Positions 60,225 through 61,020 of a stretch of 64,000 bases of DNA are shown here, piece by piece. Every line of letters starts with the position of its first letter. Position 1 is the first letter of the stretch. Source of the stretch: an uncultured Ignavibacteria bacterium (lineage in GTDB: Bacteria; Bacteroidota; Ignavibacteria; Tepidaquicellales; OLB5); contig CALMYL010000023.1 of NCBI GenBank assembly GCA_937873695.1, positions 124,001 to 188,000 of the forward strand, read 5' to 3'. The notes under the pieces were generated by a model. The model did no database searches. It worked only from the letters and a program-made list of their open reading frames with translations, and had not been told where the DNA came from. A program made the translations under genes and the position numbers.

Positions 60225-60276
60225 TGATAAATTGAAATAACGTAATAAATTGAAATTACGTAATTAATTGAATATG
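60225..60276. repeat. three 18-bp tandem units upstream of the SPT-like gene
   Basis: TGATAAATTGAAATAACG at 60225, TAATAAATTGAAATTACG at 60243 and a diverged third unit at 60261. Lies 35-86 bp before the start on the minus strand, so could bind a regulator. Confidence 0.65.
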
Positions 60277-60336
60277 TTTGAATACTAATTTACTTTATTT
60301 ATGAAATTATAACAAGGAAAAACACTTTTTTGGTAA

Positions 60337-61020
60337 ATGACGCAATTGTATTATAAGCGAAATCTTCCTCATTACCAGCCGGATAATGCAATTTATTTCA
60401 TTACATTCAGACTGGCATTTTCATTGCCTAAAAGCGTAATTCTCAGCTTAAAAGAGGAATATGATCATTTCATAAAAAGTACAAAGTTAATTAAGAATAT
60501 TTCTGAAAGAAATAACCTCATATACAAAAGAAGAAAACAGTATTTTGGAAAATTTGACAAGCTTCTGGATGGTTCCGAAAGCGGAGTTTTATGGCTTAAA
60601 AATAATGATGTTGCAAAAATCGTTTATGACAGCATAATGTTCAGAGATAAAAAAGTGTATGACTTGCATTGTTTTTGTATAATGCCAAACCATGTTCATA
60701 TGGTATTTGAAATTGGAGATGAAAATGTAGGTCGAATCGCTGATTCGACACCCCGAAACGGCGTTTCGGGTTACAGGGTAACAAAAATACTGCAGGATCT
60801 GAAAAAGTATACTGCTAAAGAATCAAATAAAATATTGAACAGAAGCGGGCAATTTTGGCACAATGAAAGCTATGATCATGTAATAAGAAATAGTATTGAA
60901 TTCGGGAATATTGTGAATTATGTTATCCAAAATCCGGTCAAGGCGGGATTGGTTGACAACTACAAAAAATGGAAGTGGACTTACGTTGCGGATTCCGTAA
61001 AGGGATTAATTATAAATTAA
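60337..61020 (+). mobile_element. REP-associated tyrosine transposase (RAYT)
   Basis: 227 residues of the Y1 family. The HUH motif is His119-Val-His121 in MPNHVHMVFE, preceded by the characteristic FCIMPNH; the catalytic Tyr195 is in NIVNYVIQNPVKAGLV and FWHNESYDHVIR lies upstream. RAYTs act on REP hairpins with a GTAG foot. Residues 132-145 (GRIADSTPRNGVSG) are encoded by two adjacent 19-nt hairpins inside the gene. The ends of the gene carry no IS-like inverted repeats, consistent with RAYTs being non-mobile domesticated genes. It separates the SPT-like gene from the epimerase. Confidence 0.9.
60727..60770. repeat. GTAG plus two REP-like hairpins inside the RAYT reading frame
   Basis: GTAG (60727-60730) is followed by GTCGAATC-GCT-GATTCGAC (60731-60749), two bases, and CCCGAAAC-GGC-GTTTCGGG (60752-60770). 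Both hairpins have 8-bp perfect arms and 3-nt loops, and the reading frame continues through them. Confidence 0.85.

What the first reader, a model, noticed from the sequence alone, without database searches (positions are those of the whole stretch)
60727..60770. A RAYT gene carries REP-like hairpins inside its own coding frame
RAYT proteins bind REP hairpins with a 5' GTAG foot. Here GTAG followed by two 8-3-8 hairpins lies within the RAYT gene and encodes residues 132-145 in frame, just after the HUH motif. The enzyme could act on its own gene or message, giving self-targeting or autoregulation, or the site may be a natural landing spot.
Basis: partly seen in the sequence, partly recalled or inferred. 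Interest (0 to 1): 0.65.

Follow-up and report, generated by a model that had tools for sequence, protein, structure and literature searches.

The report
Mobile repeat inside its own transposase
A gene for a REP-handling enzyme carries, in frame in its own coding sequence, a complete copy of the small two-hairpin DNA repeat it probably moves; this arrangement was already reported for this enzyme subclass, but the comparison made here shows the copy is old, keeps its hairpins and appears to be kept in step with a neighbouring copy.

Summary
Window 60726-60775 is a complete 50-nt REPIN (TGTAG, hairpin 1, 2 nt, hairpin 2, TTACA), in frame inside a RAYT/TnpA-REP gene (60337-61020). It encodes residues 131-145, a low-confidence loop between the HUH strand and the next helix. 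The genome holds about ten further copies, the full-length ones outside genes. Congeneric species carry the same family beside orthologous or related RAYTs. Among 71 related RAYT genes, 17 footed hairpins lie inside 14 genes (0.5 expected from codon shuffles), each lineage with its own sequence, usually like its own flanking REPs. In-frame REP insertion between HuH and Y is already published for TnpA-REP subclass 2.4 (PMC6006769), so this is a new member of a known kind. Added here: three species share the element at one site, its stems covary, and in two species the in-gene and downstream copies resemble each other more than their orthologues (concerted evolution). Most likely the REPIN landed in a permissive loop, in the stop-free frame, and has been kept or homogenised since. 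Self-targeting or autoregulation is not excluded but has no direct support.

The parts
60337..61020 (+). RAYT / TnpA-REP gene, 227 aa, intact; HUH = H119, H121; putative catalytic Tyr = Y195
   Evidence: ORF; NF047646 REP_Tyr_transpos E 4.7e-18, below its cut-off; H119, H121, Y195 invariant in 49 homologues; AF2 model matches 4er8, Z 13.7, 146 residues, 2.9 A
60726..60775 (+). complete in-gene REPIN (two hairpins with inverted TGTAR/YTACA feet)
60727..60730 (+). GTAG foot of REP 1
   Evidence: sequence
60731..60749 (+). hairpin 1, GTCGAATC-GCT-GATTCGAC
   Evidence: pairs kept across 17 copies, with compensatory changes at the base
60752..60770 (+). hairpin 2, CCCGAAAC-GGC-GTTTCGGG
60771..60775 (-). 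inverted foot (TGTAA on the minus strand)
60691..60699 (+). HUH motif codons (HVH, residues 119-121)

Best explanation
The feature is a copy of the REPIN family that this RAYT (or its recent ancestor) mobilises. It sits in a variable surface loop between the HUH strand and the following helix, in the only reading phase of hairpin 1 that has no stop codon. The insertion predates the split of at least three congeneric species. Since then its hairpins have been kept, probably by homogenisation with a neighbouring copy and/or selection on the DNA hairpin. It is mostly a tolerated passenger in a permissive site. Shown: REPIN identity, dispersed copies, shared site in three species, stem covariation, a recurrent in-gene loop site in other lineages. 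Inferred: that this RAYT mobilises it, that the loop is tolerant, that homogenisation works by gene conversion or RAYT-mediated recopying.
For: About ten further copies in the genome. G009 and G002 have a second copy just after the RAYT stop codon; the related G010 RAYT lacks an internal copy but lies between arrays of the family; the G053 RAYT is flanked by it and contains it. In 71 related genes: 17 footed in-gene hairpins versus 0.5 in codon shuffles, maximum 2; 0.38/kb in RAYT coding sequence versus 0.03/kb in neighbouring ORFs and 1.87/kb in intergenic DNA. In-gene stems resemble their own genome's flanking or dispersed REPs (0 of 20000 permutations as high). Stem covariation: 24 double-changed cells versus 7.6 in shuffles, 0/500. 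In-gene and downstream copies differ at 2 sites within G009 and at 2 within G002, against 4 between the orthologous in-gene copies and 6 between the downstream copies; three sites are shared within genomes, two of them a compensatory pair. The element's residues fall in a low-pLDDT loop. Third codon positions are more conserved inside the element (14/16 versus 104/203, p 0.007). Only one phase of hairpin 1 is stop-free, the one used.
Against: No empty-site allele of this exact gene was found, so the insertion event is inferred. No in-gene copy is identical to a dispersed one, so there is no sign of recent mobility. In this genome no REPIN directly flanks the gene. In G045 the in-gene hairpin has no other good copy in the genome, which fits a passenger from a REP population less well. 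The permutation includes related species and so is not fully independent.
Confidence: 0.75

Rival explanations
1. The in-gene REPIN is a functional cis-site: RAYT binds the hairpins in its own gene (single-stranded at the fork) or mRNA and limits its own expression or copying.
For: Recurrent in-gene REPs close to each lineage's own REP type; hairpins kept by paired changes even at amino-acid cost (GGC to AGC, Gly to Ser, in G002); the loop copy always uses the same phase; in G045 only the in-gene copy remains.
Against: Most RAYTs of the same subfamily have no in-gene REP (57 of 71 genes). In G009 and G002 the genes are broken (early TAA; frameshift) while the hairpins stay intact. No expression or binding data.
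Confidence: 0.15
2. One ancient in-gene REP in the subfamily ancestor has been inherited, lost many times, and evolves with the enzyme's specificity, rather than several separate insertions.
For: Same loop and same phase (GTA-Gxx) in all lineages with a loop copy whose foot is readable; same site in three congeners.
Against: At least 8 changes on the tree without the loop columns; a second, different site about 190 nt before HUH in L126 and L133; distances from HUH differ.
Confidence: 0.2
3. Chance palindromes, or hairpins that arise from coding constraint.
For: None beyond background hairpins.
Against: Codon shuffles give 0.5 footed hairpins versus 17; dispersed copies outside genes; residues differ between lineages while hairpins persist.
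Confidence: 0.01

Closest known systems
TnpA-REP subclass 2.4 of Quentin et al. 2018 (PMC6006769), = RAYT group 4 of Bertels et al. 2017
   Same: REPs in frame inside the tnpA-REP gene, generally between HuH and Y, in a peripheral variable region; flanking REPs; double-foot REPs; Bacteroidetes and various phyla; motif NH[IFV]H.
   Different: Here a full two-hairpin REPIN rather than a single double-foot hairpin; FWH and YVIQNP instead of WQ and YIxNNP; conservation across species and homogenisation with a downstream copy are shown here and were not found in the parts of the paper read.
REPINs / BIMEs with RAYTs (Bertels and Rainey 2011, PMC3116915; Nunvar 2010, PMC2817692)
   Same: Two inverted GTAR-footed hairpins, dispersed between genes, associated with a RAYT.
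   Different: Only about ten copies per genome instead of the usual more than 100; one copy inside the RAYT gene.
Intragenic GTAG/CGTC REPs and Rickettsia palindromic elements (PMC3733652)
   Same: Palindromic repeats inserted in frame in genes.
   Different: There in unrelated host genes; here in the transposase gene itself.

Membership tests
RAYT / TnpA-REP (Y1 HUH) | HUH motif and a catalytic Tyr | tested here: met
   H119, H121, Y195 invariant in 49 homologues
RAYT / TnpA-REP (Y1 HUH) | Sequence/fold match to known TnpA-REP | tested here: met
   4er8 by sequence E 1.5e-4 and by fold Z 13.7; NF047646 E 4.7e-18 but 65.5 bits, below its cut-off of 80
RAYT / TnpA-REP (Y1 HUH) | REPs of one type near the gene | tested here: met
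   Not in the immediate flanks in this genome, but in the orthologues G009 and G002 and around the related G010 and G053 genes
RAYT / TnpA-REP (Y1 HUH) | Cleaves or joins REP single strands | not testable with these tools
   needs biochemistry
TnpA-REP subclass 2.4 | Variable insertion between beta3 and alphaC, with REPs inside the gene | tested here: met
TnpA-REP subclass 2.4 | Motifs NH[IFV]H, WQ, YIxNNP | tested here: inconclusive
   NHVH present; FWH and YVIQNP here, but FWQ and YVINNP in the orthologues G009 and G002
TnpA-REP subclass 2.4 | Placement in the published subclass tree | not tested
   The published alignment was not available
REPIN | Two REPs in inverted orientation, each with a GTAG-like foot | tested here: met
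   TGTAR ... YTACA in 17 aligned copies
REPIN | Dispersed copies between genes | tested here: met
   full-length copies in G000 lie outside ORFs of 100 aa or more, except the RAYT one
REPIN | High copy number (usually over 100 per genome) | tested here: not met
   about 10 places in this genome; similar order in congeners. This is a usual, not a strict, feature (PMC2817692 abstract), so I file it as a low-copy REPIN.

The most novel reading that the evidence does not exclude
RAYTs of this subclass keep their cognate REP inside their own coding sequence as a functional cis-site (autoregulation, or a master copy from which flanking REPs are renewed), so that protein specificity and repeat sequence evolve together.
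Probability: 0.15. Interest if true: 0.7.

Novelty: new member of a known kind. Interest (0 to 1): 0.4.

Why it matters
It is a clean case, in a group where REPs are little studied, of a transposase gene carrying the repeat it probably moves. The three-species comparison turns a known curiosity into a testable question: is the in-gene copy a passenger, a donor for neighbouring copies, or a regulatory site? Each lineage's in-gene copy also gives a quick way to guess which REP a given RAYT recognises.

Tried and rejected
Chance hairpins (rejected). RNA family in the region: no Rfam match. Spill-over from REP density near the gene: neighbouring ORFs are near background, though selection on those genes could explain that. 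The other three Y1-type genes of this genome carry no hairpin after HUH. G045's in-gene palindrome was sought in its genome and found only in the gene. The Thg1 matches in the fold search have a larger rmsd and 3-8% identity and were not pursued. A recent insertion into this gene is rejected because G009 and G002 share the site.

Full report
What is there. The ORF at 60337-61020 (227 aa) is a RAYT / TnpA-REP homologue: NCBIfam NF047646 at E 4.7e-18, though below its curated cut-off, a sequence match to the E. coli TnpA-REP structure 4er8, and a predicted structure (mean pLDDT 88) whose best solved match is 4er8, bound to a REP hairpin (Z 13.7, 146 residues, 2.9 A). H119, H121 and Y195 are invariant in 49 homologues. 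Inside it, at 60726-60775, lies TGTAG-GTCGAATC(GCT)GATTCGAC-AC-CCCGAAAC(GGC)GTTTCGGG-TTACA. This is two 8-3-8 hairpins with inverted feet, i.e. a REPIN, and not only a GTAG foot followed by two hairpins. As DNA it folds as two hairpins with an outer TGTA/TACA stem; as RNA the best fold is one long imperfect hairpin.

Copies elsewhere. Searching the window's own genome with the 71-nt stretch gave a 92% match over 50 nt and several weaker ones. Pattern searches and a covariance model built from 17 copies of three species place about ten further copies in the genome, four of them within 9 kb on one contig. The full-length copies other than the RAYT one lie outside ORFs of 100 aa or more. The in-gene copy has the highest model score of its genome, but it was part of the training set. 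At the base of the stems, pairs change on both sides (24 cells versus 7.6 in shuffles, 0 of 500), so the pairing is maintained in the family.

Relatives of the gene. In two species of the same genus (G009, 68% identical; G002) the orthologous gene, upstream of the same SDR gene, has the element at the same codon position, and a second complete element just after the stop codon. The downstream element is missing here. The G009 gene has a stop at codon 39 and the G002 gene a frameshift; the hairpins are intact in both. A more distant RAYT of the genus (G010) has no element inside but is bracketed by arrays of the same family, and a RAYT of another family (G053) is flanked by it and contains it. 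The association of this RAYT lineage with this REP family is therefore supported by position in four other genomes; recognition itself is not shown.

Concerted evolution. In-gene and downstream copies differ at 2 of 50 positions within G009 and at 2 within G002, while the orthologous in-gene copies differ at 4 and the downstream copies at 6. Three sites (5, 28, 44) are shared by both copies of one species and differ between species; 28 and 44 form a base pair, and the change at 44 replaces Gly by Ser. This is best read as homogenisation between the two copies; numbers are small. Between this gene and the G009 gene, third codon positions agree at 14 of 16 codons inside the element and 104 of 203 outside (p 0.007).

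The wider family. Among 71 distinct related genes, 45 have footed hairpins within 400 nt of their ends, each lineage with its own sequence. Seventeen footed hairpins lie inside 14 genes; codon shuffling gives 0.5 on average and at most 2. Density is 0.38/kb in RAYT coding sequence, 0.03/kb in neighbouring ORFs and 1.87/kb in intergenic DNA. Eleven of the 14 genes carry it in the loop after HUH, two about 190 nt before HUH, one near the end. In-gene stems resemble the REPs around the same gene or in the same genome (0 of 20000 permutations, not corrected for relatedness). On a tree without the loop columns the loop copy needs at least 8 changes. All loop copies with a readable foot use the phase GTA-Gxx although most had two stop-free phases; this is a post-hoc observation. 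Homologues without the element have a shorter loop and no such residues. In the model these residues have low confidence (mean pLDDT 56 for residues 131-140 and 72 for 141-150), between the HUH strand and the next helix.

Known or new. Quentin et al. 2018 (PMC6006769) report that in TnpA-REP subclass 2.4 REPs are inserted in the tnpA-REP genes themselves without disrupting the frame, generally between HuH and Y, and suggest little effect on the protein. Intragenic REPs in other genes are reported in PMC3733652. The finding is a new member of that kind. The three-species comparison is an addition; whether others have made it was checked only in the library held here.

Mechanism. The most likely account is insertion of a REPIN into a permissive loop in the stop-free phase, before the split of the three species, followed by homogenisation with a nearby copy and possibly selection on the hairpins. 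Self-targeting or autoregulation cannot be excluded and is worth one recoding experiment. The organism is probably a member of the class Ignavibacteria: a 'same class' genome (G145, contig of 513703 bases) has a contig of the same length as an Ignavibacteriae record (L079); this is an inference.

Noticed in passing
60225-60320: The stretch upstream of the RAYT start, with two 18-nt direct repeats (ATAAATTGAAATWACGTA) and a partial third, is strongly conserved in G009 and G002, more than the gene itself; possibly a promoter or operator of the RAYT or of the divergent upstream gene.
   Followed up: partly
L201 and L202 (own genome, contig C8, about 77-86 kb): Four REPIN copies lie within 9 kb; one (C8:77472) appears orthologous to an intergenic copy in G002 (C6:351571), so intergenic copies are also old.
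   Followed up: partly
L175 (G010:C143:25500-30500): RAYT bracketed on both sides by near-identical arrays, with about 139-nt spacing, of several hairpin types: a composite BIME-like repeat.
   Followed up: no
L126 and L133, about 190 nt before the HUH codons: A second site for in-frame REPs inside RAYT genes, in a different variable region and reading phase.
   Followed up: no
L173 and L174: RAYT orthologues in G009 and G002 are broken (early stop; frameshift) while their REPIN copies are intact.
   Followed up: partly
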